DNA from: Blautia sp. | Lineage (GTDB): Bacteria; Bacillota; Clostridia; Lachnospirales; Lachnospiraceae | Direction: 5' to 3' | DNA length: 64,000 bases | NCBI GenBank assembly: GCA_022769545.1 | Contig: JALEJS010000002.1 | Span: 1 to 64,000, forward strand | Part shown: one piece after another, positions 40,049 to 64,000 of the stretch | Layout: each line of letters begins with the position of its first letter | How positions within the stretch are numbered: position 1 is the first letter of the stretch | Notes under the pieces: generated by a model | Told to the model about the DNA's origin: nothing | Database searches by the model: none | The model's input: only the letters and a program-made list of their open reading frames with translations | Position numbers and translations under genes: made by a program

Positions 40049-40251
40049 GAGTCCTGTCTCCTTCGTAATAACCAGCAAATAATTTTAAATTCAATTCATC
40101 TTACAACATTTTGCAGGTGTTTGTCTACCGGTTTTTGAATGCAGACATGGCTGAAGTGTTACGATATCCCGCTTTTGGCTTTATGAGCAGGAAGCACTCA
40201 TACACAGATTATGAATAAAAGAACTTTTATACTTATTTTATAATTTGTTTA

Positions 40252-45089: not shown

Positions 45090-45105
45090 GACAACAATCT
45101 GAGAA

Positions 45106-45134
45106 TTGATTTTTCCATATCGTTATGGTATATT
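45106..45134 (+). promoter_or_regulatory. Promoter of cassette copy 1
   Basis: TTGATT (45106-45111), 17 bp, TATATT (45129-45134). The spacer contains CCATATCGTTATGG, a small palindrome. The following AACGAACGGTTGGT (near 45142) is also conserved in copy 2 and could be the TetR operator. Confidence 0.6.
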
Positions 45135-45173
45135 TTTATTTAGAACGAACGGTTGGTAAGAGGGGGCATAGAA

Positions 45174-45791
45174 GTGGCGAACTACACAGAGGAACAATGG
45201 AATGCCAAAAAGGCGGAGCTGATGGAAAAATGTTATGACTGCTTCGCAGAACATGGCTTACACGGAACCGGTATTCGGGTACTGGCAAATGAATGCGGAT
45301 TTAATCATACAAAGCTGTATACCTATTTTAAGGATCTGGATGACCTGATCATACAGTCCACCGAATACTGTATGAGTAAGGTGGAAGAAGATTTTATGGC
45401 GAAAGCCCCGATGAATGTGCAGGACTTATGGCGGTTTATCGATGAGATACCATATTGGACGGCAGAAAAACACGGGAAGAAATACCGATTAATGTATCAG
45501 GTGTATACGCATCCGAAATACAGAGCATACGGTCAGAAATTTTTCGCAGGTGTCGACAGGCGTTATACCGAATACGCCAGGCTACTGGAGGGGAAACTCG
45601 GGATTCCTTATCAGAAGCTGGTATCGTTAATATTTATTCTGATTCGGGCCTGTGTTCATTACGCATTGTTCGAGGACGAATTTTATCTGAAAGCACAGAT
45701 CGATGTGCTGAAAGAAAGCCTTGAGATGTTTATCGAAAAGTATAGCTGCAGTAAAGCTGCAGAACAGAGGGAAAGAATTTTAGACCGATGA
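45174..45791 (+). CDS. TetR-like regulator of the giant-protein cassette, copy 1
   Basis: A 205-residue protein with a TetR helix-turn-helix (LMEKCYDCFAEHGLHGTGIR then VLANECGFNHTKLYTYFKDL) and a C-terminal domain (YWTAEKHGKKYRLMYQVYTH) that I do not match to a known ligand group. GTG 45174 follows AGAGGGGGCATAGAA. The sigma-factor gene starts 27 bp later. The two probably regulate the giant protein gene downstream. A 4-bp-deleted copy occurs at 56750. That the intact protein serves both copies is inference. Confidence 0.85.
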   Translation: MANYTEEQWNAKKAELMEKCYDCFAEHGLHGTGIRVLANECGFNHTKLYTYFKDLDDLIIQSTEYCMSKVEEDFMAKAPMNVQDLWRFIDEIPYWTAEKHGKKYRLMYQVYTHPKYRAYGQKFFAGVDRRYTEYARLLEGKLGIPYQKLVSLIFILIRACVHYALFEDEFYLKAQIDVLKESLEMFIEKYSCSKAAEQRERILDR

Positions 45792-45818
45792 GGAAAGAAA
45801 ATACAGGAGTTAAGTGGA

Positions 45819-46361
45819 ATGCTGACAGATGAACAGTTATATGATCGCTATTTTTCCGGGGAACGTCAGTCTGCGGAACAGCTGGTAGAACGTTACGGAG
45901 ATTCGCTGATTCGCTATATTAATGGCTATATTTCCGATTACCATGAATCAGAGGATCTGATGATAGAGACTTTTGCCCAGATGTTTGCAAAGAAGCGGCT
46001 GGTTACTTCAAATCATTGTTTTAAAGCATATCTATATAAAACAGCACGTAACTTGTCTGTGCGTCATTGCAGGAAGAAACGGTTTCCCCTGCTGGATCTC
46101 CAGCAGGCAGAGTTTGAAGTATCCGGGATCATCGGGGCAGATGCCGATATATTGAAGGAAGAGCGAAATCGTCAGCTTCTTCATGCGATGGAAATGATAA
46201 AGGATGAGTATCGGGAAGTACTGTATCTTCTTTATTTTGAGGATATGAAATACGAAGAGGCCGGACGGATTATGGGAAAAAATGTGTCGCAGATTACGAA
46301 TCTGGCACACCGGGCCAAAAAAAGCGTTAAGAGACTATTGGAAAAGGAGGGATTTACCTGA
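45819..46361 (+). CDS. Sigma-70 family (ECF-like) RNA polymerase sigma factor, copy 1
   Basis: A 180-residue sigma factor with region 2 (SLIRYINGYISDYHESEDLM then IETFAQMFAKK) and region 4 (YREVLYLLYFEDMKYEEAGR then IMGKNVSQITNLAHRAKKSV), separated by a short linker. No anti-sigma gene follows; control may come from the TetR-like protein before it. The ATG follows AGGAGTTAAGTGGA. The likely target is the conserved block at 46426-46500 just upstream of the giant gene, and its twin at 57543. A copy at 57392 is broken, so this would be the only working sigma of the pair. Confidence 0.87.
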   Translation: MLTDEQLYDRYFSGERQSAEQLVERYGDSLIRYINGYISDYHESEDLMIETFAQMFAKKRLVTSNHCFKAYLYKTARNLSVRHCRKKRFPLLDLQQAEFEVSGIIGADADILKEERNRQLLHAMEMIKDEYREVLYLLYFEDMKYEEAGRIMGKNVSQITNLAHRAKKSVKRLLEKEGFT

Positions 46362-46425
46362 AAGTACCAATAAAGAGCGAATGGAGTTGTTTGGCTGAAA
46401 ATCACTTGCAGAGTGTTCTGCAGAA

Positions 46426-46500
46426 AAAATTTTTATAAAAAAACTTTTTTGGTGAAAGGATTTTCCATTTTCTGACTTTATATTATAGAAGGATTATGTC
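46426..46500 (+). promoter_or_regulatory. Conserved putative sigma target block, copy 1
   Basis: About 75 bp nearly identical to 57543-57617, including ACTTTTTTGGTGAAAGGATT, TTCCATTTTCTGACTTTAT and ATAGAAGGATTATGT. TGAAAG (46453-46458) and TGAC (46473-46476) are spaced like an ECF promoter. TATTAT at 46481 has no -35 at the right distance. A small hairpin TGCAGA-GTGT-TCTGCA at 46407-46422 precedes it. The assignment to the cassette sigma factor is inferred. Confidence 0.55.
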
Positions 46501-46563
46501 TACATATATATAAATAGGCTCACGAAATTGTGGGCGATTATGATTGAAAGGGGAGGATAAAAA

Positions 46564-49500
46564 ATGAAACGGTATATGAGAAAATTCATTTCGATGATTC
46601 TGGTGCTCACCATTTTCATCACCAACACCTATACTGTCTTCGCACAGATGGACGGCGTAGGGTGGGATTCTGCCGGCGATGTGGTTTCCCTTGAGAAGGA
46701 GATCACATGGGCGGAAGCCGGCAAACAGATTGCCGGCATGCTGAGCTACATTGTGGAAGATGCGGCAGACATTGAGCTTGACGCATATTCGTCGCGCATT
46801 GCAAATCTGAGTCTGGAGGATGACAGCATCTATCTGGCCATCCTCGCAGAGGAAGGATATCTGCCAGAAGAACCGGCGCAGATTGATCCGGACACTGCCA
46901 TCACTGCCGATGAATATGTGCAATGGCTGGAACTTGCGTTCCCGAATGTGGTTGATTCTCAGGCAGCCATCGACAGCCTGCAGGGAGAGCAGGACCTTAA
47001 AAACATTGCCATCATGGGCGATGACCTTTCCATGACTACCATGCTGCCGGAGCGGCTTGCAGTAGCGGAGGCGCAGCAGCTGTCCCTGACTGCAGTGAAG
47101 TCAGCGGCGCTTTCCCTGAATGCCGTAAGCAGCGTCGATCTGAGTGAATGCGAGATTTCCCGTGTGCACATCACGGATACTGCTGTGAAGGAAGAGCAGC
47201 CGGACGAAGAATCTGAGTCCGATAAAGAAACGGAGACTGCCGGGGAAAATGAGACGGCTGAAGAGACTGAGTCGGACGAAGAAACGGAGACAGACGAAGA
47301 AGATGAATCTGACCTGATCTATCTCCATATGGATTCCGGCACACAGCTTCCCGAAGTGATCGTTAAGAGTGCCGACGAAGTGATCATCGAGGGCACCGGT
47401 GCTCTGGGCGTGGTTCGTGTGCAGGAGACTGTGGGTGATTTGACGGTCCGTGCTACGGGTTCTGTGGTAAATGAAACGGATGAAGCATTTGAAGTGACCG
47501 GCCCCGATGCTGAGGTTGTCGAGCTGCAGCCCGGCGAGCAGGTTGATTTCGTACTGAACAAATGGCTGGTATCCTTTGTCACCGAGGGAACCCCTGTGGA
47601 AACGCAGGAAGTCGCTCCCGGCGGCATGGTGGATTTCACCAGGACGGATACCACGCTGGAGGGAAAGATCTTCACCGCATGGTATGAGGATGCCGACTAT
47701 ACGACTCCGGTTTCACGTCTGGAGACGGTAAACAAACAGATGACACTGTATGCCCGGTTCGTCGATGAAGCAGATGCGGCGATCGTCACCTTCGAAACCT
47801 TCGGCGGCCGTGAGCTGGAGCCGCTGGTGTTCGCAAAAGGCGAGACCCTGCTGACGAAGCCGGTGGAAAATCTGTACACTTCAAAAGAGGGATATTCCTT
47901 TGGCGGATGGTGCGTGGATGAGGAGTGTACCACAGCATTCGGGTATGGCGATCCCATTGAGGAGAGCATGACCCTCTACGCCATGTATTCCTCCTATGAG
48001 CAGGAGGTAAAGGAAGACCCCGGCACGGTTGCGGAGGTCGAGCTTTCTGACGGGGCTGAGACCATCGGACTTGTATTGCCAAAGGGGATGACTGCAGCGA
48101 AAGCGATGGACAGCATCACCGTTGAAGCCGGTACCGGTGGGGTGACACCTGAAATTGCGGTACGTGAAACCAAGGATGGAGCGGAACTGTACTGTGAGGA
48201 GGGCTTTACTCCCGGTACTTCCTTCACCTTATTTGTTCAAAACGACGTGAAGTTTGCAGGATATCCGGAATATATCGACACACTTGTGGTAAGTATTTTC
48301 CGCGAGGAGGTCGAAGTCGTTGAATTCGCCGAGGGACTGACTTATGTTCTGTGGGATGAAGTGACGGAATATACTCCTGTGAGCAAGACGGACGTTGAGT
48401 ATACAACCGATTATTCCGAGGACGGCACCGTATATAACATGCTTGAGGATAACGATGCCGAGGGCAACGTTATTCCCGGCAAGCTGATCATGGCCGGCGA
48501 GGTCCATTTCAAGCCGGAGCAGGTAGTCGTATTCTACGACGGTGAGATCGGACGGGACGAAGCTACGATCACCTCCTGGGAGGGCGGCGATCTGGCAGGC
48601 TATGTGCTGTTTGCAAAAATCAGCTCCGTGGAGACAAGAGCAGACGGTACCAGTGAAGTGACCTTTGTCTATGCGGATCCTGAGGAATACATGGAGGAGC
48701 TGGATGTTCACACCATCGAGGAAGTGAATCTGGAAGAGAATCTGAGCGAGGAGCAGATCGCTCAGGTAGAAAGGGCTATTGCCAGCCAGCTGGCCAGCAA
48801 CGACGAGCTGAAGGCACAGATGCTGGTGGCAGTCATGACCAGTGAGGATACCCAGCAGATGCTGGATGACCGGTATGGTGCAGGTACATACTCGCTGGCT
48901 GCGATGGTGCCTTATGTGAGAGACCCCAAGCTGGATATCAATGTGTCCGTCGAGGGCAGCACCGCCACCGCCGGCATCGGCGTGGGTGTTACGGTCGATT
49001 TGTACGGATCACAGGGTCTGCTGGTTTCTCTTTCTCCCTATCTGTTCTTTGAGGAGCAGCTGACTCTGGATGTCCACATGGACGGCGGCTTCCTGTGGGT
49101 CGATACGTCTGTGGTTTTCAATACCAAAACCACCGTGAGCCTGCAGATCAAGGCGACCACCGGAGATGGCATGGACGACATCTTCGACGAGGCGAAGAGC
49201 ACGCTGGAGGAGATCGTCAACGCCGATGGTACGGCAACCGAAGATTACGATTATCAGGAAGCGGCGGACAAGCTGATGAACACCATGCAGGAGCTGGTGG
49301 ATGCTGAACTGGAATATCAGGATCTGTTTGCGGTGCCTCTGATTAAGATTATGAATACCTTCTATGGCATCATCACCTTTGGCATCAACGTCGAACTGGT
49401 AGGTCAGGCAGCTGTCGTTGCCACCTTCGGCGTTACCGTCACGGCGGAATACGGCCAGAAGATCGGTTTCAACTACGACTTCAAGAAATTCGAGGGCGGC

Positions 49501-52500
49501 TCTTATAAGGAGAAGCTGGCCAGCGAAGTGACCACGGAAGTCTATCTGATCGGAAAGATGGGCGTGCGCGTGGGAATCGCCATTACCTTCTACATCAAGC
49601 TCCTTCAGAATGTAACGGTATCCGTCACGGGTTCGATCTATGCCTATGTCGAGCTGGCGGGTATGTTCCTGTATTCCTATGCACTGTCGGCGGGGGGAGG
49701 CAACTATGCGGGTGCCATATACCTGGAGGTCGGCATAGATGCTGAGATCGAGCTGGTTCTCGAAGTCGAGATCTTTGTAATCGCCGTTGAGAAGAGCTGG
49801 ACACTCTGGAGCGATCGCTGGCCGCTGTACAGCTGGTCCTGCGGCATGACCATGAGTGTGGTGCAGAACAAGGAACTGGAGGAGATGTGGGCTCTGGCCA
49901 CGAAGGATGCAGATGGCAAGACGAGTTTCCCCATCCGGTATATTCCTATGAAAACCTACGACATGCTCACCGCCAAATGCACGGAGAATCAGCTTCTGTT
50001 TGACAACCTGCAGAAAGGCAACGTTACCGCGAAGCTGACTCTGGAGAACATCGTCCTTGACGGGGAAGCCGCGGCTTCCGATGACCCGCGCGCAGATGTC
50101 GTATATGTGGGCGGCGGTGAAAAAGGCAAGCCCAATGTAGTCTATGTGGATGAACTGGTGGCTGCAGAAAAAAAGGTAAGCAACCTCGAGTGTGATGTGG
50201 TGCTGACCTACGAGAACAAGAACAAATCCGAACTGATCAAGAAGCATCGGCAGGTGTTCCACCTTACCCGTGAGTTCAAGATGGCCACGACCACTGTCAA
50301 CGTGAACATCGCTCTGTACGACTGGTGCGCCCACTCCTGGGGCATTGAAACCGCCGAATGGGACAACGCTACGGTGTATGAAACCTCCTTCGAGAACACC
50401 CACGTTCTGGGATGCCCGGTGGAACCCACCGCAACCGGCGAAATCGACCTGGATGCCGTGATCGCCACTGTAAAGGAACGCTATCCCGATATCGATGTTT
50501 CGGCGCTCTCCTGGTTCAATCCGACGCTGAACCAGGTTGACCGCACCGTGCAGTACAGCGTTCCGCGCATCAGCAACATGTGCTATCTGACACCCGGAAG
50601 CGGCACCGTTCGTTATGATATATTTTCAACGACTACCGAATACAGCCTGAACTTCAATCTGTTCGCCAGCCGTTATTCCGGCTATAACGGTGAGATTACC
50701 TATATTATCGACGCGCCCGACGCGCCTGCTGACACCGTGTTCACAGTCAGCGGAAGTAATGATGGAGAAACGATGACCTTCGCGCGCATGGGGGATGGGA
50801 CCAATCGCTGGTCCCTGACGGCAGCCCGCTCTGTTTTTAATGGCAGTGAGCGCCCGATCATGATGAGCGTGAACGGCGGAAAAGCCGTTGCCAGCGGACT
50901 GATCGTCACCGGACGTGAGAAGGATTCCGTGGTCGTTCTGACACTGACTGATCTTTTCAGTAAGCTCACTGTGGAAAGCGCGGAAGGAGTTGATTCCTGG
51001 GAGATTCTGACCCATGATCCTTCGGAGATGTCTGCTATCACACACGGCGATACGGTCACACTCTCTGCCAAGCTGAAGAATGGATATGAGAGCCTGCGTA
51101 TTACATCAGAGCCGGAGGGTCTGGAATACACATCTGACGGAAATAAGATTACCTTCAGCATGCCATCCCACGATGTGAAAGTTATTCTCCATGGCGTGCG
51201 CAGCTATCAGGCGAACTTCCTGTATAACTACGGTGAGCTTGGCACCTATCTCAGTGTTGATGTGAAGGAAGGCAGCACTCTTCAGAAGCCTGCCGATCCT
51301 TATGTCAAGGGCCTGACCTTTGCAGGCTGGTATGATAACGCCGCATGTGAGGGCCAGCCGTATGACTTCACGAAGAAGATCGATGGCAATCTCAACCTGT
51401 ACGCCGACTGGCGTGTGAATGTCACTGTGAATTTTGGCGGTGTGAAGGGTCGTGCGGCCTACGTCACCGGCCGCCGTACGGAGGAAATCGACGGCGAAAC
51501 CGTGGAGGTTGTCGAAACCGCGCAGATCTTCCCCGGCGATGAAACCGAATACAGCCGCTACACCTATGCTACCCACAAGGTAGGAGAGACTGCGCTGGAA
51601 TATGCTCTGCCGAACTACGACGGCTATGATTTCATGGGCTGGTATCTCACTCCGGATTTATCCGGAAAACCAGTAGATCCCACGAAATATGTACTCACCG
51701 GAGGCGTGACCTTCTACGCCTGCTGGAAGCAGAGCGCTGTTCTGACCTACGAGCTGAACTATGGCGAGAAGGAAGAGCCGTACTGCATGTCTCTGGAGCA
51801 TGTGGGCATGCCATTGGAAACCATACCGGAGGATCCGAAGCGTGAGAACTACGACTTCCTCGGCTGGTACCGCGTGCCGACTGGCGGCAATGCCAACCGT
51901 GTTGCAATTGATGCATCCTATATCGTTGAGGGAACGATGACGCTGTACGCCTGCTGGGCACCAACGGATTATTCCATCAATTATGTGCTGGGCGAAAATG
52001 GAACAAATCATTCGGACAACCCCGTCTCTCATAACGTTGAGAGCGGCAGACTTCCCCTGTACGCGCCTACCCGCGAGGGCTATGACTTCCGCGGCTGGGA
52101 GGTGTCGGGCATTGAGGCACTGGAAATGAATGAGGACGGCAGTGTTTACATTCCTGCCGGTCTTGCCGGGGAAATTACCCTGACTGCGGTATGGGACGCA
52201 ATTGAATATACGATTACCTACAACCTCATCCGCGGTGAAGCAGCGGAATCCAATCCCACCAGCTACACCGTCGAGAGTGACGACATTGTGCTGAGCAACC
52301 CCAAAGCGGATGGCTATGAATTCACCGGCTGGACGGGCACGGGACTGGACGGCAAGACCATTAACGTGACGATCCCCACGGGCTCCACAGGCAATCGTGA
52401 ATACACGGCCACCTGGCTCCCCACCGATCCCACGGAACGAATGGTTGCCGAGGCGCTGGATATTCTTCCCGATCCGTACAAGATGAAGCTGGAAGACTTC

Positions 52501-55500
52501 ACCGGCGTGGAAGACTATATCCCTGCCGCTATGGCGGCTCTGACTGCGGACGAATACTTCGCCACCTATGTCGATCAGCTTTCCGTGTCGGTGGTGCAGG
52601 AGGGCGAGCCGACACAGACGGGCACCAGCCTGCGCTACCCACTGACGGTGACGGTCACCCTTACCGATGACAACGGCGAGGTTCTCGCCACCGCAAGCAG
52701 AGAAGGCGTAACCCTGGAGGTTCTGAAGAAGTCCGTGACCATCACTGCGGAGGTGGACTACACCGATGCGGTGGACGGCAAGTACATTGCCTATGGCACA
52801 GCCCTTTCCGGGGTGAAGCTGACCAACATGACAGCTGTGGATGCGGACAACAACGAGGTGACCGGTACCTTTGCCTGGGCGGAGCCGGATACCGTTCCCC
52901 TTGGTTCGGACAACGGCACGGCCAAATACAAGGTTGTGTTCACACCGGACGAGGAATTCGCTTCCACCTACAGCACCGCGGAAACGCTGGTGGCTGTGAA
53001 TACGCAGATTGGCGTGAAGCTGACGATAAGGCCGAAGTACGGTACCGAGTACATTGGTTGTGCGATGCCTGCAACCTCGTTCTCCTACTATTATGTCAAC
53101 AAGGAAACCGGTGAGCAGGTCGGAGGCTTTTGGTCTCCTGTCAATCCTGTACTTGAGCAGGACAACATCGAAATCGGCCCCACCACGGTGAAGCTTTTGA
53201 GCTATGAGTCGCATACCGTACCAGGTGTCACCGACAACAGCCTGTATGCCATCGACAGCGAGAATGTTTCGGTTTCTTTCGATATTGTCAGAGCGAAGCC
53301 GAGTATCTTAGGTCAGGTGACCTATACCGTCACGGTTGGTACCACACTGTATGAAATGCCCTACAATCTGTATGCGTACAAAACATATGTGGGCAGAATC
53401 GACGGCAAATTCTCCTGGTCCACCACGGACGTTGTGTTTGACACTGTGGGCACCTATAATTACACAATAAACTTCACGCCTACAGATACTGTTCACTTTG
53501 AGAGCAGCAGCCTTGAGCTGCCGATCAAGGTGATCAAGAAGGTTGTGACGGCGCCCGGCATCGATTCTTTCGACTACGACGGCAATGCACATCAGGCAAA
53601 CATTTCCGAGACGGATGACTACACCGTGAGCGGCAATGAGCCCCGGACGGATGCGGGAAGCTACAGTGTCACCCTGACGCTGAAGGATCCGACAAGGTGT
53701 CAGTGGTCTGATGATGACAAGAACGCGGACAAGGTGCTGACCTACTCCATTAATCCTGTGGACCTGACGGTTGAAAAGGGAAGCAATTTCGAGGTTCAGT
53801 CCCTGGGCTACGGGCAGATGCTGTCCTACAATGAAAATACAAGGGGTGATTCCGATTATGACACGATTCACAAGGTTGCCAACGATATGATCCAGGGCCT
53901 GAACGTGAAGGACGTTGGCGGCAATAATGTCTCCGGCAAGTGGGTGTGGAATTGGAATGATACGAATGTAGGTAAACTTCTGGATGCCAGCTCCTCGTCC
54001 GGGGAGGATCCAGACATCACCAACAAAACGGGTTACGAGGTGAAGGCTACCTATAAGCTGACCACGGAAAATACCAACTACAACACGCTGACGTATACCT
54101 TCCACGTGGACGTGGAGCGTGCGACACCTTATGTGGATGAGAAGAAGTGCAAATTTGAGGTGCTGGAAGGCAAAGTGTACATGCCTGCAGATAAGACGCA
54201 GGTGAACCCGGTGGATGAGTTCACCCCTGTCTTTACAGCCGATAGTGAGATGCCTACCAATCCCAGTGACCCCAGCATGAGCGTGGACGGTACGCTGGAA
54301 TGGGAACAGGCGGTGGATGAAAATGGTAAAGTGGTGAGACGTTATTTTGAACCAGACAAGGACTTTGCACCTGCCGTGTTCACACCTACAGACACGGTGA
54401 ACTACAGGTCACCCAATGTTAAGATACCTGTGGTGTACAAATCCGATGTGGATGTACAGATCACGGGATACCCTGGTTACCTCTGCAGCGACAATAACTT
54501 TAATGATTTTAATGACAGTATCGAAATGACATGGACGCCTTCACCGGATAATAGTATTTCTGTATGGTCGTATGTCTTTGTGAATAAGACTAGGATAGGT
54601 TTTGCCAGGATTAAGGTTTATGCCTATATGAATGGTGGATACAAGCGTGTGCTCGAAACAACGTATCAGTGTGATGTGAATACAAACGTATATAGTAGTA
54701 GTTCATCCATTGAATTCGATGGTGATGTAACGGTTGAGAATAGCGGTTTTGGCGGTTTGCCACTAGATCAGGCTCTGGGACAACTCAACGATACTTATCC
54801 TAACTTTCCTGCGGGTTACTGGCTGAATATGCCTGGTACGATCAACGATACCTGGATGCACCATGATCTCAAAATAGAGATTTACTACGGTACTTTCACG
54901 GTAACCAATGATAGCCCTATCGGACGCTTTGATCAGATTGTTTCGGATTCGTCGTATTCCCTGAGTAGTCAGACACTTGCTGCCGAACCCGCCGGGGAGA
55001 CTACATCCATTCCGGAACCGGGAACCATTGGCGATGTGGTCAGAATCGAGCCGAAGCAGGATGCAGAGAAGTCAGATAACGTCTGGAAAATCCAGCTTGC
55101 AAAAGACCAGAAGAAGGTTGGATTCAAGTGGGATGTGAGCGAGTCTGCTTCCGAATATCTTGTCTACACCCAGAAGCAGGACGGCAAAGATGAGCCTAAG
55201 CTGATCGGCATGACCGCTGACAGGAATATCGAACTGGATGTATCGGATTATGCGTCCGGACGCTATAAGCTTTATGTAGGCGCTGTTCTGGAAGACGGCA
55301 GTGTAACCTGGGGAGAAGCGCAGTTCGAACTGATCGCTTTCGTGGAACCGACGCCGGAACCGACGATCGAGCCGACACCGGAGCCGACGATCGAGCCGAC
55401 ACCGGAACCGACGATTGAGCCGACACCGGAACCGACGATCGAGCCGACACCGGAACCGACGATCGAGCCGACACCGGAACCGACGATCGAGCCGACACCG

Positions 55501-55719: not shown

Positions 55720-55778
55720 GTTAAGGAAGCGGCGGCTGCTGAAGAAGCAGCATAAGACCTTCCGGAATAGAGAGATAT

Positions 55779-56570
55779 ATGAAACGAACGATTTTTACCT
55801 TTGCAGGAAGAGCTCTGGCTCTTCCTGCAATTCTGATTTTACTGACGATCCTTCCGTGGGAGACCTGTTGTGCGGCGGAACCGGTTACGGTCTGTATCCT
55901 TGATTCCGGCTGCGGCGAGGACGATGCCGAAGGAGAGAGCTTTCTGGGTGATCCTGACGATCTGACAGATTCCATCGGCCACGGCACCCGCATCTGCTCA
56001 CTGGTGCGCAGCGGCGCGCCGGAGGCGAAGGTTATCATGCTCAAGTGCTTTGAATCGCAGGATACCGTAAATGAAGAGGCCATCATTTCCGCACTGCATG
56101 CTGCTGTGGATACGTATCACGCCGATGTCATCAACATGAGCTGGACGCTGGCAGACAAAAGCGATGCGCTTCATGAAGCCATTCTCCACGCCAGTGATCA
56201 GGGCGCTGTCCTCGTTGCCTGCACCGGCAATCTGAGTCTGAGCACCGGTCTCGGTACCGTCGCTTATCCAGCCGCATGGGACGAAGTCATCGGAGTCGCG
56301 GGAGTGGACCTGAACGATGCAGGGGAGCCGCAGACCAGCCTGTGGTATCTTTACGGAGAAGCTGTCGATTTCTGTGCCCGCAGCGACTGCGGTGATGACA
56401 AAGGCTCATCCTATGCCGCCGCCCGTGTCTCCGGCCTGATTGCCGCTGCTCTTTCGAACGGCGCGGAGCCCTCACGGATTGTCGAACACCTCGCAGAGAA
56501 TGTGCAGGATATGGGCGATCCCGGTTATGACGAGCGGTTTGGCTGGGGGTATCTGGAAACCGAACCATGA
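55779..56570 (+). CDS. Small secreted subtilisin-like (S8) serine protease
   Basis: A 263-residue protein with a signal peptide (ALALPAILILLTILPWETCC) and a compact S8 catalytic domain. The triad is Asp42 (CILDSG), His68 (IGHGTRI) and Ser211 (GSSYAAARVSG); Asn151 in ACTGN is the oxyanion residue. The usual GTSMAAP is GSSYAAA. There is no propeptide or extra domain. It lies 59 bp after the giant gene, so processing or release of the giant protein is a natural guess. A terminator follows at 56601. Confidence 0.88.
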   Translation: MKRTIFTFAGRALALPAILILLTILPWETCCAAEPVTVCILDSGCGEDDAEGESFLGDPDDLTDSIGHGTRICSLVRSGAPEAKVIMLKCFESQDTVNEEAIISALHAAVDTYHADVINMSWTLADKSDALHEAILHASDQGAVLVACTGNLSLSTGLGTVAYPAAWDEVIGVAGVDLNDAGEPQTSLWYLYGEAVDFCARSDCGDDKGSSYAAARVSGLIAAALSNGAEPSRIVEHLAENVQDMGDPGYDERFGWGYLETEP

Positions 56571-56600
56571 TCAAATAATAGAATAGAGAGCAATTTCCAA

Positions 56601-56631
56601 GGCATCAACCCTGAAAAGTTGGTGCCTTTTT
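56601..56631 (+). terminator. Intrinsic terminator after the protease gene
   Basis: GGCATCAAC (56601-56609) pairs with GTTGGTGCC (56618-56626), one G-T pair, followed by TTTTT. It ends cassette copy 1; copy 2 similarity starts at 56671. Confidence 0.85.
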
Positions 56632-56680
56632 GCTGTATGGCTTTACGGTAACTTCACTGCGGCAGGGAGAAATCTGAGAA

Positions 56681-56709
56681 TTGATTTTTACATATCGTTA
56701 TGGTATGTT
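56681..56709 (+). promoter_or_regulatory. Promoter of cassette copy 2
   Basis: TTGATT (56681-56686), 17 bp, TATGTT (56704-56709), with the same CATATCGTTATGG spacer end and downstream AACGGTTGGT as at 45106-45155. The -10 is weaker than in copy 1. Confidence 0.5.
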
Positions 56710-56749
56710 TTATTCAGAACAAACGGTTGGTGAAGGGGGGAGTGATAAA

Positions 56750-57390
56750 GTGGCGAATTATACAGAAGAACAATGGAATGCCAAGAAAGAAGAACTGATG
56801 GAAAAATGTTTTGACTGTTTTGCAGAACATGGCTTACACGGAACCGGCATTCGTGTATTGGCAAACGAATGCGGATTTAATCATACAAAGCTTTATACCT
56901 ATTTTAAGGATCTGGATGATCTGATCATCCAGTCCACCGAATATTGTATGAGGTGGAAGCGGATTTTATGGCGAAAGCTCCGGTGAATGTGCCGGATTTA
57001 TGGCGGTTTATCGATGAGATCCCATATTGGACGGCAGAAAAACACGGAAAGAAATACAGATTGATGTATCAGGTGTATACACACCCGAAATACAGGGCGT
57101 ACGGTCAGAAATTTTTTGCAGGATTAGACAGGCGTTATGCCGAATACGCCAGGTCACTGGAGGGGAAACTGGGTATTCCTTATCAGAAGCTGGTAGCGTT
57201 AATTTTTATTCTGATTCGGGCCTGTGTACATTACGCATTGTTTGAGGACGAATTTTATCTGAAAGCACAGATCGGTGTTCTGAAAGAAAGTCTTATGATG
57301 TTTATCGAAAAGTATGACTGCAGTGAAGCGGCAGAACAGAGTGAGAAAACAATAGGGCCGACAATGAAAGAAAATACAGGAGTTAATTAG
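56750..57390 (+). pseudogene. TetR-like regulator, copy 2, frameshifted
   Basis: GTG 56750 begins VANYTEEQWNAKKEELMEKC, closely matching copy 1. After STEYCM the DNA reads TGTATGAGGTGGAAG, where copy 1 has TGTATGAGTAAGGTGGAAG. The four missing bases shift the frame, and translation ends at 56986. The other frame continues with DFMAKAPVNVPDLWRF to 57390, close to copy 1 throughout. The helix-turn-helix would still be made; the ligand and dimer domain would be lost. Confidence 0.9.
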
Positions 57391-57391
57391 A

Positions 57392-57540
57392 ATGCTGACA
57401 GATGAACAGTTATATGATCGATATTTTTCCGGGGAACGTCAGGTTGCAGAACAACTGGTAGAACGATACGGATGGTTATTTCAAATAATTGCTTTAAAGC
57501 ATATCTTTATAAAACAGCTCGTAATTTGTCTCTTCCGGCA
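57392..57540 (+). pseudogene. Sigma-factor gene, copy 2, with two deletions
   Basis: The first 27 codons (MLTDEQLYDRYFSGERQVAE then QLVERYG) match copy 1. The DNA then jumps from the equivalent of 45899 to 46000, a 100-bp loss that breaks the frame and removes region 2. A second gap, from about 46057 to 46420 of copy 1, removes all of region 4 and joins the remnant directly to the promoter block. It cannot encode a working sigma factor. Confidence 0.9.
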
Positions 57541-57542
57541 GG

Positions 57543-57617
57543 AAAATTTTTATAAAAAAACTTTTTTGGTGAAAGGATTTTCCATTTCCTGACTTTTATT
57601 TTATAGAAGAATTATGT
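57543..57617 (+). promoter_or_regulatory. Conserved putative sigma target block, copy 2
   Basis: Second copy of the block at 46426-46500, with a one-base insertion in the TGACTTTTATTTTATAG segment and a few substitutions. The TGAAAG to TGAC spacing (14 bp) is unchanged. It survived although the sigma gene that abutted it was deleted. Confidence 0.55.
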
Positions 57618-57731
57618 TTTCATATAATTTAAATCGAACGTACGTACGCGAGATTTATTATTACTCACCGCTCATATTATATAGAAATGGGAGTCTTCTT
57701 CGACTGAGAAAACAGATGGGAGGAATAAGGG

Positions 57732-60700
57732 ATGAAGAAAAAGAGAATCAAACAATGGATTGCCGTGCTTCTGACAGTAGTCATGATCTTTCAGACTGTT
57801 GGAAATGTTGTACTGGCACAGCCCCAGACTTCAGATGAAACAGTGGGGCAGGTACAGGAAGCTCAGGAGCAGACGGAAACAGGTTCTGACGAAGCAGAGA
57901 AGGAACTGGTACTTCCTGACAGAGTAGCAGGCTGGTCACAGGATTATGAAACAGCAGCTACGCAGGAAGAAGCGGATGCACTGCGTAATCAGAAGGAAGA
58001 TGTGAATCTTCTGATTACAGCGAAAGAATGTGAGCTGTCTGGATTAAAGTATGGCGAAATCGTAACAGCGTCATGTGAGCGTCTGGACTTATCAGATGTG
58101 ACAGGCAAGCTGTTAAGTGTGAACGGCAGTGCAGAGATTAAACTGAAAAGCACAGAGCTGGAACAGTTGTTCCTTAATGCCGGGGAAGCCGAATGCATCA
58201 GCCTGTATGCAGATATCGACACGAAAATTCCGGAAATCATTCTGGAAGGCAGTGGGGATGTGGTTATTGAAGGAAATGCGGCTCTTGGCATGGTTCGTGT
58301 AAGTAAACCGATGGAGCAGCTGACAGTCAGAGCCACCTGTTCTGTGTTAAATGAATCCGGTCAGAATCTGAAGCTGGAAAAACCGGATGGAAATACAGAA
58401 GAACTGCAAGCCGGACAGCAGAAAGAACTGGTACTTTCTTCCTATATCATTACATTTATGGCAGACGGAGAAGTTTATCAGACTCTGACTGCAAAACCGG
58501 GAGAGACGATTGCATATCCGGAAACCAATCCGGAAAAAGAGGGAAGTATTTTTACCACCTGGTATAAGGATGAAAAATATACAGAAGCCTGCTCTCAGTT
58601 TGATGTGGTAGAAAAAGAGGAGACGCTGTATGCCAGATTTGTGGATGAGGCAGATGCGATAAAGATCACCTTTGATACGATGGGTGGAAGAAAGCTGGAA
58701 CCGCAGATTCTGGCAAAAGGCGAATCTCTGCTCACCAGATCCGTATCAGAGATATATACAGAAAAAGAAGGATATACATTTGGAGGATGGTGTAAGGATC
58801 CGGAATGTACCGAAGCTGTTTCCTATAGTGATCCTCTGGAAGAGTCTCAGACGTTATATGCTTATTTTGTCTCCAATGAAGCGCAGGAAGTTGAAAAAGA
58901 CGGTACGTCAACAGAGCTGAAAGATTTTGACTGGCAGGATAAAATTGCGCTTCGCACCGATGAAAAGATGTCTCCGGAAGAAGTCATGGAGAATGTAAAA
59001 GTGGAGGCCAGTACCGGTGCGCTGGAGCCGAAACTGGAACTGGAAGAGACCGAGGACGAATATCTTCTGTATGGTGCCTATTATGAAAAGGACGGAGAAG
59101 CCGGTCTGGAACCAGGTGCAACCTTTAGTGTGATTTTATCCGGCGGAGTGCATTTTGCGGATTATCCGGATGAGACAGATACTGCAGTGGTATCCGTATA
59201 CAAAGAACGGGTTGAGATCGTGGGATTTTCAGAAGATATTTCCTACGTACTCTGGGATGATGTGCTGGAATATACGCCAGTGGTTGCATCAGAAGAAAAC
59301 GATCTGTCTGTGGAAGAAGAGATGATGTCGGAAGACGAAAGCGAGCCGGATGACGAAGCTGAGCCGGAAGATGAAAAAGAACCGGAAGACGAAGACGAGT
59401 CGGAAGATGAAAGTGAGTCCGAAGACAAAGCTGAGCCGGAAGACGAAACGGAGGAATTTCGGACAGAAGGTGAGACAGATTCTGACGGAGAAAACGCTCA
59501 GGAATGGGAAGATGCGCCGTACATACCAGGAGAGCTTCTCGTAAAGCAGGGTACCTCCTATCAGGTGGGAGATATTGTTGCATTCTACGATGGAGAGATC
59601 GGAAGAGATGAGAAAAGCATCGACGCATATACAGAAGGTTCGCTGGATGGCTATGTTCTGTTTGCACAGATTTTGAGTGCAGAAGAAACGGAAGATGGGA
59701 TCCGGCTGACTTATGGATATGCCAGTCCGGAGGATTACCTGTCAGATCTTGATGTGCATGTATCAGATGACGTGGAAATGGAAGAACAGTTATCTGATGA
59801 AGATCTGGAAGTACTGACATCCAGACTGTCCAGACAGGTGGAAGAGAACGAAGAGCTGAAGGCACAGATGCTGGTAGCAGTGATGAGTGCTCCGGAAACC
59901 CAGGGTATGCTGGACGATATGTATGGAGAAGGCGTGTATTCCCTGGCTGCCATGACAGCTACCTTAACCCCGGGCAAACCGACGGTAAGACTGTCTGTAT
60001 CAGGAAGCGGCGTATCGGCGACGATCAGTATTGCTGCTACGGCAACCATCCGCAACAATGGAAAGGTTATGCTGCAGGTTCAGCCGAAGCTGTCCTTTAC
60101 GCAGGAGCTTTCCGTTTCCACAAATGTGGATGGCGGTAAGGTATGGATTGATATGTCTGTATCGATTCGCTCAACCACGAAGATAGAACTTACGGTAACA
60201 GCTTCTACCGGCGGAAAATTTAACGTATTTTCCAAGGCGGAAGATGCACTGTCAGAAATCGTAAAACCGGAAGGCATTGCTTCAGACTCTTATGAGACCA
60301 TTGATTCGTCGGTAGCCGATCTGATGGATACCATGAATTCAATTATGTCCACATCTCTGAAATACAATGATATTTTTGATGTGCTTCTTCTGAATCTGAA
60401 GTATTCTTTCTATGGAATTATCACCGTAGGATTTGAAGTACATCTGGTGGGACAGATTGGTGTGCTGGCAACCTTCGGCGTGGAGATTGTGGCAAAGAGC
60501 GGAGAACGCATCGGATTTAAGTATAATTTCCTGAAATTTAAAGGAAGCTCCTATACGGAAAAATTAGAGAGCAGTGTGACGAATAACATTTATCTGATTG
60601 GTAAAGTCGGTGTCCGGGTGGGACTGAGACTGGTTCTGTCGGTCACTTTGTGTGGAATTGCAACTGCGTCGATTTCCGGAAGTCTGTATGCCTATGCAGA

Positions 60701-63700
60701 ATTGTCGGGTCTGTTCTTTAATACGACCAATTTACTGACCGGATCCAATACGAATCTGGGAGCACTGAGATTTGAAGTCGGTATCGATGTGGTGGTGACG
60801 CTGGGATTAAAGGTAAAACTGATTATCAAGACTATCCGGAAAAACTGGACGGTCTATACCGGCAGATGGCCGCTGTGGTCGAAATCCGTATCCAGTACAT
60901 TAAGCTATGTGAATGAAGAAAAACTGAAAGAACAGTGGAAAGCACAGGCAGCTAAGGCAGATAAAAAGACCGTATTCGGATTTGATTACATACCGATGAA
61001 AACCTGGGATCTCATGAGTGGAAAATGTACCGACAGTCAGATCCTGAGCGCAAAGAACAACAATATCAAACTGTCGATAAAAAATCTTGTGGTAAATGGA
61101 GAACCGGTAAAAGAAGGTGCTCTGGAGAATGGACTGTTTAAGGTGGGAGTTGCGTCGAAGGGACAGAATCCGGCTTATATCTATATGGATGAAGCCGTGG
61201 CAGCAGAACTGCTGTGCGAGACGGCAGAGCTGGATATTGTACTGACCTATGAAAATAACAGCTCTTCTGCGCTGGTGAAAAAGCAGGAAGTAAGCTTCCA
61301 TCTGAAAAAGAAATGTTCTCTTGCAACAACAACACAAAATGTAAAAGTGGTTCTGAATGACTGGTGTGCAAGACAATGGGGATTGGAGACTGCATCCTGG
61401 GACAATGCGGTTGTATATGAAACCTCCTTCAGTACATCTCATATGCTTGGGCGGGTCTACGAACCGACAGCTACCGGAACATTGAATCTGGGTGAGATTC
61501 TGTCCAGTGTACAGAGCCTTTATCCGGAGATCAGAGAATACACCTGTCAGTGGCAGGAGCCGTCAGAGGCAGGCACTGTGATGCAGTACAGTGTTCCGAG
61601 AGTCAGCAATTTCTGCTATATGACGCCGGAAAACGGAGTGGTAAGATATGACGTATATCCGAAAACGGACTCCTACGATGTCACTTACTGTCTGTATGTG
61701 AGGCGGTTTGAGGGAAATGATGACAGCATCCGTTACCATATTCGCATCAACGACAGATATGAAGAAGACAGCTATGAATTCCAGGTGAAGCCGACAGGCT
61801 ATGATAAGGAGCTGACATTTGCAGAACAGGAGGATGGAACGTATCTTCTGGAAGCACGGCGTAAACAGTTTAACGGCACAGATCGTCCGCTTATGATGGC
61901 CGTCAACGGCGGAGAAGCTGTAAAGACCGGATTTTCTCTGAATGGACGGGAATATCAGCAGGATGTATATTTTGACCTGACACTGGGGAATTCCACGCTG
62001 GGCGTTAAGCTTGGAAATGGTGTGACCGGTTATCAGATTGTAAAACCGGAAAATCTGACAGAAGACGGAATCAGAGCGGGAACGAAGGTGGAACTTCAGG
62101 CAGAACTGGCAGAGGGCTACGGCGGCCTGGAGGTACTCTGTGAGAATACCAATGTGGATTTTAAAGTGGAAGGAAATGTGGTCAGCTTTGTAATGCCGGG
62201 CCAGGATCTGACAATTACACTGTGTGCATATAAGCTTTACAGTGTGACCTATATGTATCATTATGGCGGATATGGAATTTATGATACTGTGTATTATACA
62301 GAGAAAGAAGAAGTGAAAAAGGTTCAGGATCCGGAAATCGAAGGACTGACCTTCCGTGGATGGTATACTTCTCTGGATGCATCAGGCGAACCTTACGAAT
62401 TCGGTCAGAAACTGGAAACAGATATCACCCTTTATGCAGACTGGACCTGTGATGTGACGGTATACTTCTCACCTGCAAAAGGAAAAGCAGTATATCTGAC
62501 CGGAGATGAAAATCAGATGGAAGAACATTTGATTTTTGAAGGCGATACAAATGAATACTATAAATTTACCTATTCCACACTGCGCGTGGGAGAAAAACTT
62601 CTGAATATTCAGATACCGGAATATGACGGCTATCAGTTTATGGATTGGTATACAGATCCACAGTGGACTTCGGAACCGGTGAATCTGGAAACCTATGAAG
62701 TGACCGGTGGAGTGGAACTGTACGCCCGTTGGGCAAAAATGCTTACTGTAACCTTTGATACAAATGACGGATCCGAAAAAACTCTGTGGGAAGAAGTGAC
62801 AGCTTACAGTGGTTATCCGCTTCCTCTTCTGCCGGAAGAACCGCAGAGAGAATGCTATACCTTCACCGGCTGGTATCGCAACCATGCGGCAACGCAGCGA
62901 TTTGATACAGATACGGAGATCATCAATGGCGATCTGACATTATATGCCGGATGGAAGGCAGATGAATATGAAATCACCTACGACCTGGGCGGCGGAGTGA
63001 ATGCACAGAGCAATCCGACTTCCTATACGACGGAAGATTTCTTCTCTCTGGCAGAGCCGACAAGAGAAGGCTATACCTTTGTGGGATGGACAGGAACCGG
63101 TCTGGAGGATGGAATCAGAAAAGACGTGACAGTGGAGGCCGGAAGCAGCGGAGACCGCACGTATACGGCAGTCTGGGAGCCGATTATTTACACGATCAGC
63201 TACAGCAGAATTTATGAATCCACAGAAACGTATCCGGAATCCTATTGTATCGAAAGTGAAAATATTACACTTCCGACACCGGTCAGAGCGGGCTATACCT
63301 TTGAAGGCTGGACGGGAACCGGTCTGGAGCAGATGCAAAAAGAAGTGGTAATCCCCAAGGGTTCCATGGGAGATCGTTCATACACGGCAAACTGGAGCAC
63401 CTCAGATCCGATTCTGAATATTCTGGAAAACGTGGGAATACTGGCTGATCAGAATCCATATGAGACAGAGCTTACAGACTGTCTGCCGGTCGATACGGAT
63501 ATCAACGGGACGATCGATTATGCTTCTGTGAAAGCGTCCCTGGAAGAAAAGGTAGCTGCTTATCTGGAAGAGTTGATTGCAAATGACGAAAAGCTCGGCT
63601 CATACAGCAGCAATCTTGAAATCAGTGCAAAGGTAACCGGCGAGGATTTATCCAGCGATGGAACAAAGCAGAAGTATACGGTTGCGCTGACGGTTGTGTT

Positions 63701-64000
63701 TACGGATGATCAGGGTCAGCAGACCCCACAGGACATCAAGGATTATCAGGCTGCCTTAAAGAAACTGACGGTACAGTGCACGTGGCCGACCGCTTCAAGG
63801 ATTGCTCTGAATCAAACTGTAAATGACAGTGAACTTTCCGATGACGGAGCAGCATCCTCTACCTACAAAGAGCAGCCGGTGACGGTTGCCGGAGTATTTG
63901 ACTGGAAACAATCGGAAAAAGCGAAGGTTCCGTATGGTAAAAATAACGGTACGGATGCTGGAAAGTATACGGCAGTATTCACACCGACACTGTCTGACCG
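57732..64000 (+). CDS. Giant secreted repeat protein, copy 2 (partial, runs off the window)
   Basis: ATG 57732 after AGGAATAAGGG starts MKKKRIKQWIAVLLTVVMIF, a signal peptide. The start and right-edge frames agree over more than 2,080 codons. It parallels copy 1: PEIILEGSGDVVIEGNAALG, InlB-like repeats (TFGGWCKDPEC), an acidic linker near 59320-59500, a shared block ELKAQMLVAVMSAPETQGML, the beta-rich core (about 59950-61500) and more InlB-like repeats (62250-63400), then an MBG-like segment. Its base composition is more AT-rich than copy 1. Identity is mostly at protein level, so the giants diverged far more than the regulator region. Confidence 0.85.
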   Translation, partial: MKKKRIKQWIAVLLTVVMIFQTVGNVVLAQPQTSDETVGQVQEAQEQTETGSDEAEKELVLPDRVAGWSQDYETAATQEEADALRNQKEDVNLLITAKECELSGLKYGEIVTASCERLDLSDVTGKLLSVNGSAEIKLKSTELEQLFLNAGEAECISLYADIDTKIPEIILEGSGDVVIEGNAALGMVRVSKPMEQLTVRATCSVLNESGQNLKLEKPDGNTEELQAGQQKELVLSSYIITFMADGEVYQTLTAKPGETIAYPETNPEKEGSIFTTWYKDEKYTEACSQFDVVEKEETLYARFVDEADAIKITFDTMGGRKLEPQILAKGESLLTRSVSEIYTEKEGYTFGGWCKDPECTEAVSYSDPLEESQTLYAYFVSNEAQEVEKDGTSTELKDFDWQDKIALRTDEKMSPEEVMENVKVEASTGALEPKLELEETEDEYLLYGAYYEKDGEAGLEPGATFSVILSGGVHFADYPDETDTAVVSVYKERVEIVGFSEDISYVLWDDVLEYTPVVASEENDLSVEEEMMSEDESEPDDEAEPEDEKEPEDEDESEDESESEDKAEPEDETEEFRTEGETDSDGENAQEWEDAPYIPGELLVKQGTSYQVGDIVAFYDGEIGRDEKSIDAYTEGSLDGYVLFAQILSAEETEDGIRLTYGYASPEDYLSDLDVHVSDDVEMEEQLSDEDLEVLTSRLSRQVEENEELKAQMLVAVMSAPETQGMLDDMYGEGVYSLAAMTATLTPGKPTVRLSVSGSGVSATISIAATATIRNNGKVMLQVQPKLSFTQELSVSTNVDGGKVWIDMSVSIRSTTKIELTVTASTGGKFNVFSKAEDALSEIVKPEGIASDSYETIDSSVADLMDTMNSIMSTSLKYNDIFDVLLLNLKYSFYGIITVGFEVHLVGQIGVLATFGVEIVAKSGERIGFKYNFLKFKGSSYTEKLESSVTNNIYLIGKVGVRVGLRLVLSVTLCGIATASISGSLYAYAELSGLFFNTTNLLTGSNTNLGALRFEVGIDVVVTLGLKVKLIIKTIRKNWTVYTGRWPLWSKSVSSTLSYVNEEKLKEQWKAQAAKADKKTVFGFDYIPMKTWDLMSGKCTDSQILSAKNNNIKLSIKNLVVNGEPVKEGALENGLFKVGVASKGQNPAYIYMDEAVAAELLCETAELDIVLTYENNSSSALVKKQEVSFHLKKKCSLATTTQNVKVVLNDWCARQWGLETASWDNAVVYETSFSTSHMLGRVYEPTATGTLNLGEILSSVQSLYPEIREYTCQWQEPSEAGTVMQYSVPRVSNFCYMTPENGVVRYDVYPKTDSYDVTYCLYVRRFEGNDDSIRYHIRINDRYEEDSYEFQVKPTGYDKELTFAEQEDGTYLLEARRKQFNGTDRPLMMAVNGGEAVKTGFSLNGREYQQDVYFDLTLGNSTLGVKLGNGVTGYQIVKPENLTEDGIRAGTKVELQAELAEGYGGLEVLCENTNVDFKVEGNVVSFVMPGQDLTITLCAYKLYSVTYMYHYGGYGIYDTVYYTEKEEVKKVQDPEIEGLTFRGWYTSLDASGEPYEFGQKLETDITLYADWTCDVTVYFSPAKGKAVYLTGDENQMEEHLIFEGDTNEYYKFTYSTLRVGEKLLNIQIPEYDGYQFMDWYTDPQWTSEPVNLETYEVTGGVELYARWAKMLTVTFDTNDGSEKTLWEEVTAYSGYPLPLLPEEPQRECYTFTGWYRNHAATQRFDTDTEIINGDLTLYAGWKADEYEITYDLGGGVNAQSNPTSYTTEDFFSLAEPTREGYTFVGWTGTGLEDGIRKDVTVEAGSSGDRTYTAVWEPIIYTISYSRIYESTETYPESYCIESENITLPTPVRAGYTFEGWTGTGLEQMQKEVVIPKGSMGDRSYTANWSTSDPILNILENVGILADQNPYETELTDCLPVDTDINGTIDYASVKASLEEKVAAYLEELIANDEKLGSYSSNLEISAKVTGEDLSSDGTKQKYTVALTVVFTDDQGQQTPQDIKDYQAALKKLTVQCTWPTASRIALNQTVNDSELSDDGAASSTYKEQPVTVAGVFDWKQSEKAKVPYGKNNGTDAGKYTAVFTPTLSD

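What the first reader, a model, noticed from the sequence alone, without database searches (positions are those of the whole stretch)
45096..64000. Tandem cassette: TetR, sigma factor, giant secreted protein, protease
A regulator, a private sigma factor, a signal-peptide protein of over 3,000 residues and a 263-residue secreted subtilase lie in a row, and the first three recur in order 11,575 bp later. No anchoring signal, sortase or anti-sigma gene is visible. I know of no described system with this composition. It could be a regulated adhesin or matrix module whose protease trims or releases the giant protein.
Basis: partly seen in the sequence, partly recalled or inferred. Interest (0 to 1): 0.78.

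Follow-up and report, generated by a model that had tools for sequence, protein, structure and literature searches.

The report
Private sigma factor for giant proteins
A gut bacterium appears to keep a private transcription switch, probably controlled by a TetR repressor, for very large secreted proteins that come paired with a small secreted protease; it looks like a stripped-down version of a more widespread, apparently undescribed system.

Summary
The cassette is real, but one part was misread. Cassette A is TetR, ECF sigma, 3,051-aa giant, secreted subtilase. In cassette B only giant and protease recur intact; its TetR is frameshifted and its sigma reduced to a fragment. The second protease lies beyond the window at 66344-67144.

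The giant-subtilase pair is the conserved unit (7 of 7 testable copies). The sigma is next to a giant only here, yet it is tied to giants: its nearest relatives lie in a Lachnospiraceae operon ending in large secreted proteins, with a PrsW-type protease. A promoter element before those large proteins matches both window giants (32.5 and 29.5 bits; next best in 96 kb, 11.2). The genome holds three such sites; the third precedes a sortase-type secreted protein of about 1,190 aa. Among 11 genomes scanned, sites occurred in the four with a close sigma and in none of the other seven.

Best reading: TetR represses its own TetR-sigma operon; released sigma drives giants A, B and the third protein, and the subtilase processes its giant. 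No PrsW of that type was found in this genome, so TetR probably replaces it. The regulatory half rests on sequence only; protease action is inferred. New variant of a known kind.

The parts
45106..45134 (+). Housekeeping-type promoter of the TetR-sigma operon (TTGATT-17-TATATT) with palindrome CCATA-TCGT-TATGG at 45115-45128 between the hexamers: candidate TetR operator
   Evidence: pattern written after seeing the sites; two matches in 96 kb: 45106 and 56681; 9 of 12; this scan finds no more promoters here than shuffles; operator role inferred
45153..45791 (+). TetR-family regulator; likely GTG start at 45174
   Evidence: Pfam TetR_N E=2.1e-06
45819..46361 (+). ECF sigma factor (180 aa)
   Evidence: Pfam Sigma70_r2, r4_2; groups with PrsW-type sigmas
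46451..46488 (+). Predicted sigma-dependent promoter of giant A (32.5 bits)
46564..55719 (+). Giant A: 3,051 aa, signal peptide by eye, core about 635-1470, List-Bact repeats, Pro-Thr-Glu tail, no LPXTG
55779..56570 (+). Subtilase A: 263 aa, signal peptide by eye, no propeptide domain found; D42, H68, N151, S211 invariant in four homologues
56681..56709 (+). Copy-B TetR promoter, retained
56750..57390 (+). Copy-B TetR remnant, frameshifted by a 4-nt loss near 56951
57392..57540 (+). Copy-B sigma remnant with large internal losses
57568..57605 (+). Predicted sigma-dependent promoter of giant B (29.5 bits), retained although its local sigma is lost
57732..64000 (+). Giant B (2,871 aa in all; runs to 66347 beyond the window); subtilase B follows at 66344-67144

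Best explanation
This is a TetR-controlled private sigma switch for giant secreted proteins. (1, inferred) TetR binds a palindrome in its own housekeeping promoter and keeps the TetR-sigma operon low until an unknown ligand appears. (2, supported by sequence) The ECF sigma made from that operon recognises GGTGARAGGATTTT-N8-TGTNTTTAT-type promoters: in cis before giant A, in trans before giant B, whose own TetR and sigma have decayed, and in trans before a sortase-type secreted protein of about 1,190 aa on another contig. (3, inferred) Each giant is made and secreted with its subtilase; the subtilase, which has no recognised propeptide and whose matches in the genomes examined all lie directly after a giant, folds on, matures or trims that giant, which has no recognised anchor. 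(4, supported by a tree) The sigma comes from a Lachnospiraceae sigma group normally encoded with a PrsW-type protease and small membrane proteins; TetR control replaced that module here.
For: Promoter: a 38-nt matrix from three foreign sites (L094, L095, L096) scores 46451 at 32.5 and 57568 at 29.5 bits out of 191,926 positions; next best 11.2; maximum in 2,378,704 reversed-sequence positions 16.0. The genome-wide pattern gives 3 sites in G000, 2 in G368, 1 each in G389 and G416, none in the other 7 genomes, and none with the reversed control in any of the 11. The third G000 site and the second G368 site directly precede large secreted proteins (frames of 1,188 and 1,443 aa; 28.4 and 41.2 bits). 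G368, the only one of 8 other giant-bearing genomes with a close sigma (50%, on another contig), has the element before its giant (37.4 bits); no site above 11 bits was found in L010, L011, L012, L013, L015 or L016. Sigma lineage: the window sigma falls on the side of a 100/99 branch that holds 13 of the 18 PrsW-type sigmas and none of 12 others; 15 of 16 testable PrsW-type loci have a same-strand ORF of at least 500 aa downstream, 12 of at least 1,000 aa, all 15 with a signal-like N-terminal stretch. Pair: subtilase follows the giant in 7 of 7 testable copies; a more distant subtilase in G002 also lies directly after a giant (frame of at least 3,102 aa). No PrsW of this type in G000.
Against: No expression data. 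The three training sites were first found by similarity to the window block, so the window scores are partly circular; what is independent is where the sites lie and the two extra targets. The pattern was written after seeing the giant A, giant B and G368 sites. Presence/absence numbers are small (2 genomes with a close sigma against 6 without, among those with a readable giant 5' end). A and B share their promoter block by duplication. Only 7 of the 15 other PrsW-type loci were scanned with the matrix, and its top hit missed the expected place in 2 of them (L100, L110); L099 is a near copy of a training site. The G368 giant is split over two contigs, assumed to be one gene, and its 5' part is interrupted by an in-frame stop. 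No structure could be predicted. Protease substrate and TetR ligand are unknown; the genomic context of the 247 metagenomic subtilase relatives was not seen.
Confidence: 0.66

Rival explanations
1. The shared block upstream of the giants is only a hitch-hiking leftover of the duplicated TetR-sigma segment; the giants are transcribed by the housekeeping polymerase and the sigma controls something else.
For: The block lies at the end of the 88-91% identical duplicated segment. The first-pass match rests on similarity to the window itself.
Against: The same element sits before the small membrane protein/giant transcripts in other genera, before a giant on another contig than the sigma in G368 and before a secreted protein on another contig in the own genome; it was not found in 7 genomes without a close sigma. 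In copy B it survived while the sigma gene beside it was deleted.
Confidence: 0.12
2. The giant-subtilase pair is a transferable module that takes up whatever regulator is locally available; TetR-sigma is incidental and the regulatory story is not general.
For: Giant A relatives carry another TetR and/or LuxR-type regulators. Distribution is patchy: 3 of 64 genus genomes, own included, and 1 of 250 in the family of G361, which is G361 itself.
Against: The sigma group is tied to large secreted proteins, with or without this giant type. This rival is compatible with the best explanation for the pair and contradicts only the importance of sigma.
Confidence: 0.2
3. The subtilase does not act on the giant; it is an independent secreted protease (nutrition, competition or host protein cleavage) that merely shares the transcript.
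For: Full catalytic residues and its own signal-like N-terminus. No cleavage evidence.
Against: It follows the giant in 7 of 7 testable copies and its start overlaps the giant's stop in B and in G368. No propeptide domain was found. In 348 family genomes matches at E<=1e-30 are the two own copies and one in G002, and the G002 one, 372 aa, also lies 75 nt after a giant.
Confidence: 0.25

Closest known systems
Canonical ECF sigma/anti-sigma pairs released by regulated proteolysis (B. subtilis SigW-RsiW-PrsW; C. difficile SigV-RsiV; recalled, plus listings and starts of abstracts)
   Same: ECF sigma with regions 2 and 4; relatives of the window sigma are encoded with a PrsW-type protease and a small membrane protein that often overlaps the sigma stop.
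   Different: The window sigma has no such partner gene beside it, and no PrsW of that type was found in its genome. The targets seen are large secreted proteins; envelope-stress targets of the known pairs are recalled.
ECF sigma factors without anti-sigma, regulated by transcription (e.g. group ECF203, possibly under TetR repressors conserved in its neighbourhoods; passages of PMC8999054)
   Same: TetR gene next to an ECF sigma without a visible anti-sigma.
   Different: ECF203's cited example is from Streptomyces; here the sigma groups with Lachnospiraceae PrsW-type sigmas and its predicted promoters precede giant secreted proteins. ECF group assignment was not tested.
InlB B-repeat / List-Bact repeat secreted proteins
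   Same: PF09479 repeats over the cut-off in both giants; sources name several relatives 'InlB B-repeat-containing protein'.
   Different: The roughly 830-aa core has no Pfam match in giants A and B and no convincing PDB sequence match; no LPXTG; paired with a subtilase.
QhpE-type small subtilisins (NF049966)
   Same: Best NCBIfam match of subtilase A, 103.5 bits.
   Different: Below the curated cut-off of 165 bits; has a signal-like N-terminus and a giant partner.

Membership tests
ECF sigma factor | Sigma-70 regions 2 and 4 without regions 1 and 3 | tested here: met
   Pfam r2 and r4_2 over cut-offs, no other region reported; TIGR02937 sigma70-ECF 75.8 bits against 42.9
ECF sigma controlled by a PrsW-cleaved anti-sigma | Cognate membrane anti-sigma and PrsW gene | tested here: not met
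   No PrsW-type match at E<=1e-6 in G000, 91% complete; no relative of the small membrane proteins in 96 kb of the contig; the rest of the genome was not searched for those
ECF sigma regulated by a TetR repressor | Adjacent co-transcribed TetR with an operator at the sigma operon promoter | tested here: inconclusive
   TetR ends 27 nt upstream of the sigma start, palindrome between promoter hexamers; binding and co-transcription not tested
Sortase-anchored surface protein (giants A and B) | C-terminal LPXTG-type motif plus hydrophobic segment | tested here: not met
   No motif, no C-terminal hydrophobic stretch; the genome has three sortase matches
S-layer homology anchored protein | SLH domain (PF00395) | tested here: not met
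   The N-terminal part (about 37-135) looks SLH-like by eye, but Pfam gives nothing at E<=10 for five N-terminal fragments
Peptidase S8 (subtilase) | S8 domain with Asp/His/Ser triad | tested here: met
   PF00082 78.5 and 92.6 bits; D42, H68, S211 and N151 invariant in four; their catalytic role is recalled from the family
QhpE (NF049966) | Score over the curated cut-off of 165 bits | tested here: not met
   103.5 bits

The most novel reading that the evidence does not exclude
Lachnospiraceae hold a family of private sigma systems whose regulons consist mainly of giant secreted proteins. The promoter code is kept while the sensor is exchanged: a PrsW/small-membrane-protein module in most, a TetR here, or a sigma elsewhere in the genome serving an acquired giant as in G368. 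The giant-subtilase pair is a transferable secreted module in which a propeptide-less subtilase is dedicated to its giant.
Probability: 0.45. Interest if true: 0.8.

Novelty: new variant of a known kind. Interest (0 to 1): 0.66.

Why it matters
Gut Lachnospiraceae encode very large secreted proteins whose purpose and control are unknown. A conserved promoter element that marks such genes, together with a dedicated sigma, gives a handle to predict which giants are switched on together, to induce them on purpose and to ask what they do. It also suggests a sigma factor changing its mode of control, from a PrsW-type module to a TetR repressor, while keeping its promoter code.

Tried and rejected
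Rejected: a complete second TetR-sigma-giant cassette (B regulators are remnants); sigma as a constant partner of the giant (not adjacent in the eight loci L010-L017; the 5' flank of L014 is too short to tell); anchoring by LPXTG or SLH; an anti-phage role (PADLOC: only a subtilase model at E=0.00098 for the protease, nothing for sigma or giant); a known solved fold for the giant core by sequence (one hit at E=0.24, taken as chance).

Led nowhere: the ten distant proteins of other family genomes that share part of the core showed no subtilase beside them in the stretches fetched; one (L041) has an ECF sigma of only weak similarity (E=1e-7) 3.7 kb away. Matching longest-contig lengths between protein lists suggested sigma P0071 with giant P0001 (20,995 bp), sigma P0078 with giant P0044 (18,721 bp) and subtilase P0208 with giant P0005 (34,817 bp); suggestive only, since these contigs could not be opened. 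Ten literature searches: among the papers listed (at most 20 per search, out of up to 1,036 matching) none was on such a sigma-giant system; the library holds only open-licence papers, and the main ECF classification paper, tried by a recalled DOI, is not held. I saw listings and starts of abstracts, plus passages of PMC8999054.
Full report
WHAT IS THERE. The window is part of a 131-kb contig of a Lachnospiraceae-type genome (G000, 2.96 Mb, 91% complete). The family name rests on NCBI titles and names of relatives, not on a taxonomy call. Cassette A: TetR (45153-45791, likely GTG 45174), ECF sigma (45819-46361), giant A (46564-55719, 3,051 aa), subtilase A (55779-56570). Cassette B: TetR remnant with a 4-nt loss, sigma remnant with large losses, intact giant B (57732-66347, 2,871 aa), and subtilase B (66344-67144) beyond the window, its start overlapping the giant's stop. 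The statement that the first three genes recur is therefore wrong for TetR and sigma; the question whether a second protease follows is answered yes.

AGE OF THE DUPLICATION. The giants are 35% identical over a 2,060-column alignment and the proteases 44%. The TetR-to-sigma-5' DNA is 88.8% identical over 788 nt, a sigma fragment 88.9% over 63 nt and the giant promoter block 91.3% over 92 nt. The regulatory segment was copied, or converted, far more recently than the giants diverged. In B the coding parts then decayed while the promoter block stayed, which fits a promoter served in trans by copy A's sigma.

THE GIANT-SUBTILASE PAIR. One scan of the collection of 84,980 species genomes, with two short peptide patterns, found eight loci with close relatives of the giant core (42-75% identical to A). 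Where the 3' end of the giant is on the contig, a subtilase follows directly: G000-A, G000-B, G361, G362, G328, G348, G368, that is 7 of 7 copies; G363, G366 and G367 run off their contigs inside the giant. The G368 giant lies on two contigs that I take to be one gene, and its 5' part has an in-frame stop. In 348 family genomes (own included) this subtilase type (E<=1e-30) occurs as the two own copies plus one weaker match in G002. The G002 one, 372 aa, lies 75 nt after a giant frame of at least 3,102 aa that lacks the core, and just before a 1,838-aa protein. The window subtilase has a signal-like N-terminus but no propeptide domain was found; its best solved relatives by sequence are subtilisin BPN' variants. 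Distribution is patchy: 3 of 64 genus genomes, own included, and 1 of 250 in the family of G361, namely G361 itself. Ten other genomes of 299 in the family hold proteins that share part of the core, with no subtilase beside them in the stretches fetched.

REGULATORS DIFFER. Upstream of the giant in L010, L012 and L015 is a different TetR (Pfam-tested in L012 only); in L011, L012, L013 and L015 there is a LuxR-type regulator (Pfam-tested in L015 only) and a small cysteine-containing protein of about 105 aa; L016 and L061 have what look like housekeeping genes upstream (the other gene names by eye). None of these has the sigma next to it.

THE SIGMA'S RELATIVES. A search of 348 family genomes gave 50 non-own sigma matches at E<=1e-22. 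I fetched 29 of them plus the G368 locus, 30 in all. Eighteen have, within 4 kb downstream, a gene similar to the PrsW-type gene of L095 or L101 (L095: PF13367, 59.5 bits), including the ten sigmas nearest to the window's. Typical order: sigma, ~115-aa membrane protein, ~205-aa membrane protein, PrsW, ~105-aa membrane protein, large secreted protein. The first small protein was detected right after sigma in 14 of 18, with the same 14-nt overlap in 11. Of 16 such loci with enough sequence left downstream, 15 have a same-strand ORF of at least 500 aa and 12 of at least 1,000 aa; the exception is G368. All 15 ORFs have a hydrophobic, signal-like N-terminal stretch. L096 and L097 carry identical sigma proteins, so the loci are not all independent. 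In a 49-row tree a 100/99 branch separates the window sigma and 13 of the 18 PrsW-type sigmas (32 rows) from the other 5 PrsW-type and all 12 non-PrsW sigmas. No PrsW of this type was found at E<=1e-6 in G000, G328, G348, G361, G362, G363, G366 or G367; it was found in G368, G389 and G416.

THE PROMOTER ELEMENT. A 28-nt part of the block upstream of giants A and B occurs exactly twice in G000 with up to 3 mismatches. Looking for the block in relatives, the best match in 7 of the 10 sigma loci fell in the gap just before the last small membrane protein or the large protein (misses L100, L102, L103, the last without PrsW). A matrix from three of these foreign sites, applied to 96 kb of the own contig, gives 46451 (32.5 bits) and 57568 (29.5), next 11.2; 2.38 million reversed positions reach at most 16.0. 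In 7 of the 15 other PrsW-type loci scanned with it, the top hit is at the expected place in 5 (L099, L101, L109, L111, L121; not L100, L110); L099 is a near copy of a training site. Caution: the training sites were found through similarity to the window, so the window scores are partly circular; where the sites lie is not.

TESTS IN TRANS. Among eight giant-bearing genomes other than the own one, only G368 has a close sigma (50%, on another contig; next best 34% in G361). Only G368 has the element before its giant (37.4 bits); its sigma locus has the PrsW module but no large protein after it. The 5' end of the G348 giant is off its contig. A genome-wide pattern, written after seeing these sites, was run on 11 genomes: 3 sites in G000, 2 in G368, 1 each in G389 and G416, none in seven genomes without a close sigma, reversed control zero in all 11. 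The two unforeseen sites each lie just before a large secreted protein: a 1,188-aa frame in G000 (L142:6207) ending in a TPDTG-type sortase signal, and a 1,443-aa frame with MBG and Big_2 domains in G368 (L143:4267). With only 2 genomes with a close sigma and 6 without whose giant 5' end is readable, and one of the 2 being the window itself, the presence/absence test alone is weak.

MECHANISM. A housekeeping-type promoter (TTGATT-17-TATATT) with the palindrome CCATA-TCGT-TATGG between its hexamers precedes TetR at 45106-45134 and, slightly changed, at 56681; the generic promoter scan does not exceed shuffles, so this is inference. I propose: ligand releases TetR; sigma is made; sigma opens giant A, giant B and the surface protein on the other contig; each giant leaves the cell with its subtilase, which matures or trims it. 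Shown by sequence: gene content, decay of B, pair conservation, promoter element, sigma grouping. Inferred: TetR autorepression, sigma-promoter contact, protease substrate, absence of anchoring.

NOVELTY. TetR control of some ECF sigmas has been proposed before (passages of PMC8999054), and PrsW acting on anti-sigmas is known (recalled, with the listings). None of the papers listed by ten searches of the open-licence library was about a sigma dedicated to giant secreted proteins in Lachnospiraceae. I therefore call it a new variant of a known kind, with a wider system around it that deserves its own study.

CHANGES ON RE-CHECKING. They added the G002 case, the in-frame stop in the G368 giant, the signal-like N-termini of the 15 large ORFs and the absence of small-membrane-protein relatives on the own contig. 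Only the odds of the independent-protease rival changed (0.30 to 0.25).

Noticed in passing
window 26945-27180 +: T-box leader (RF00230, 105.7 bits), the only Rfam match at the gathering score in the window.
   Followed up: no
L094-L102, L109-L112, L114, L121, L123, L125, L127: Conserved gene order of ECF sigma, small membrane protein, membrane protein, PrsW-type protease, second small membrane protein, large secreted protein (complete where the contig allows, except L109); the two small membrane proteins are similar to each other, the first a candidate anti-sigma and the second inside the giant's presumed transcript, perhaps feedback.
   Followed up: partly
L102, L112, L123, L125, L127: A more distant sigma group shows a variant element (GTGAGTAAAAT-like) before its large proteins, by eye, as if promoter and sigma changed together.
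   Followed up: no
L142:6270-9836 (G000:C4): 1,188-aa frame of repeated Cys/His motifs (DxxPxDHxCDxC) with a TPDTG-type sortase signal; only one weak Pfam match, below its cut-off.
   Followed up: partly
L144:1-16036 (G002:C7): A different, 372-aa subtilase with an N-terminal hydrophobic stretch sits between a giant frame of at least 3,102 aa and a 1,838-aa protein, so the giant-subtilase pairing may be older than this giant type.
   Followed up: partly
window 47201-47301, 59329-59448, 55348-55603: Tandem repeats inside the giants: acidic 18-nt units in both and a 24-nt PTPEPTIE unit in giant A's tail.
   Followed up: no
L019-L028, L035-L044: Proteins of other family genomes (frames of about 1,040-3,250 aa, some cut by contig ends) share 117-426 columns of the core, without the subtilase: a wider unnamed domain.
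   Followed up: partly
window 38405-40078 (-), 43825-44955 (+): Two large ORFs that look like DUF362/ferredoxin-type proteins by eye flank a GntR-ABC cluster just upstream of the cassette.
   Followed up: no
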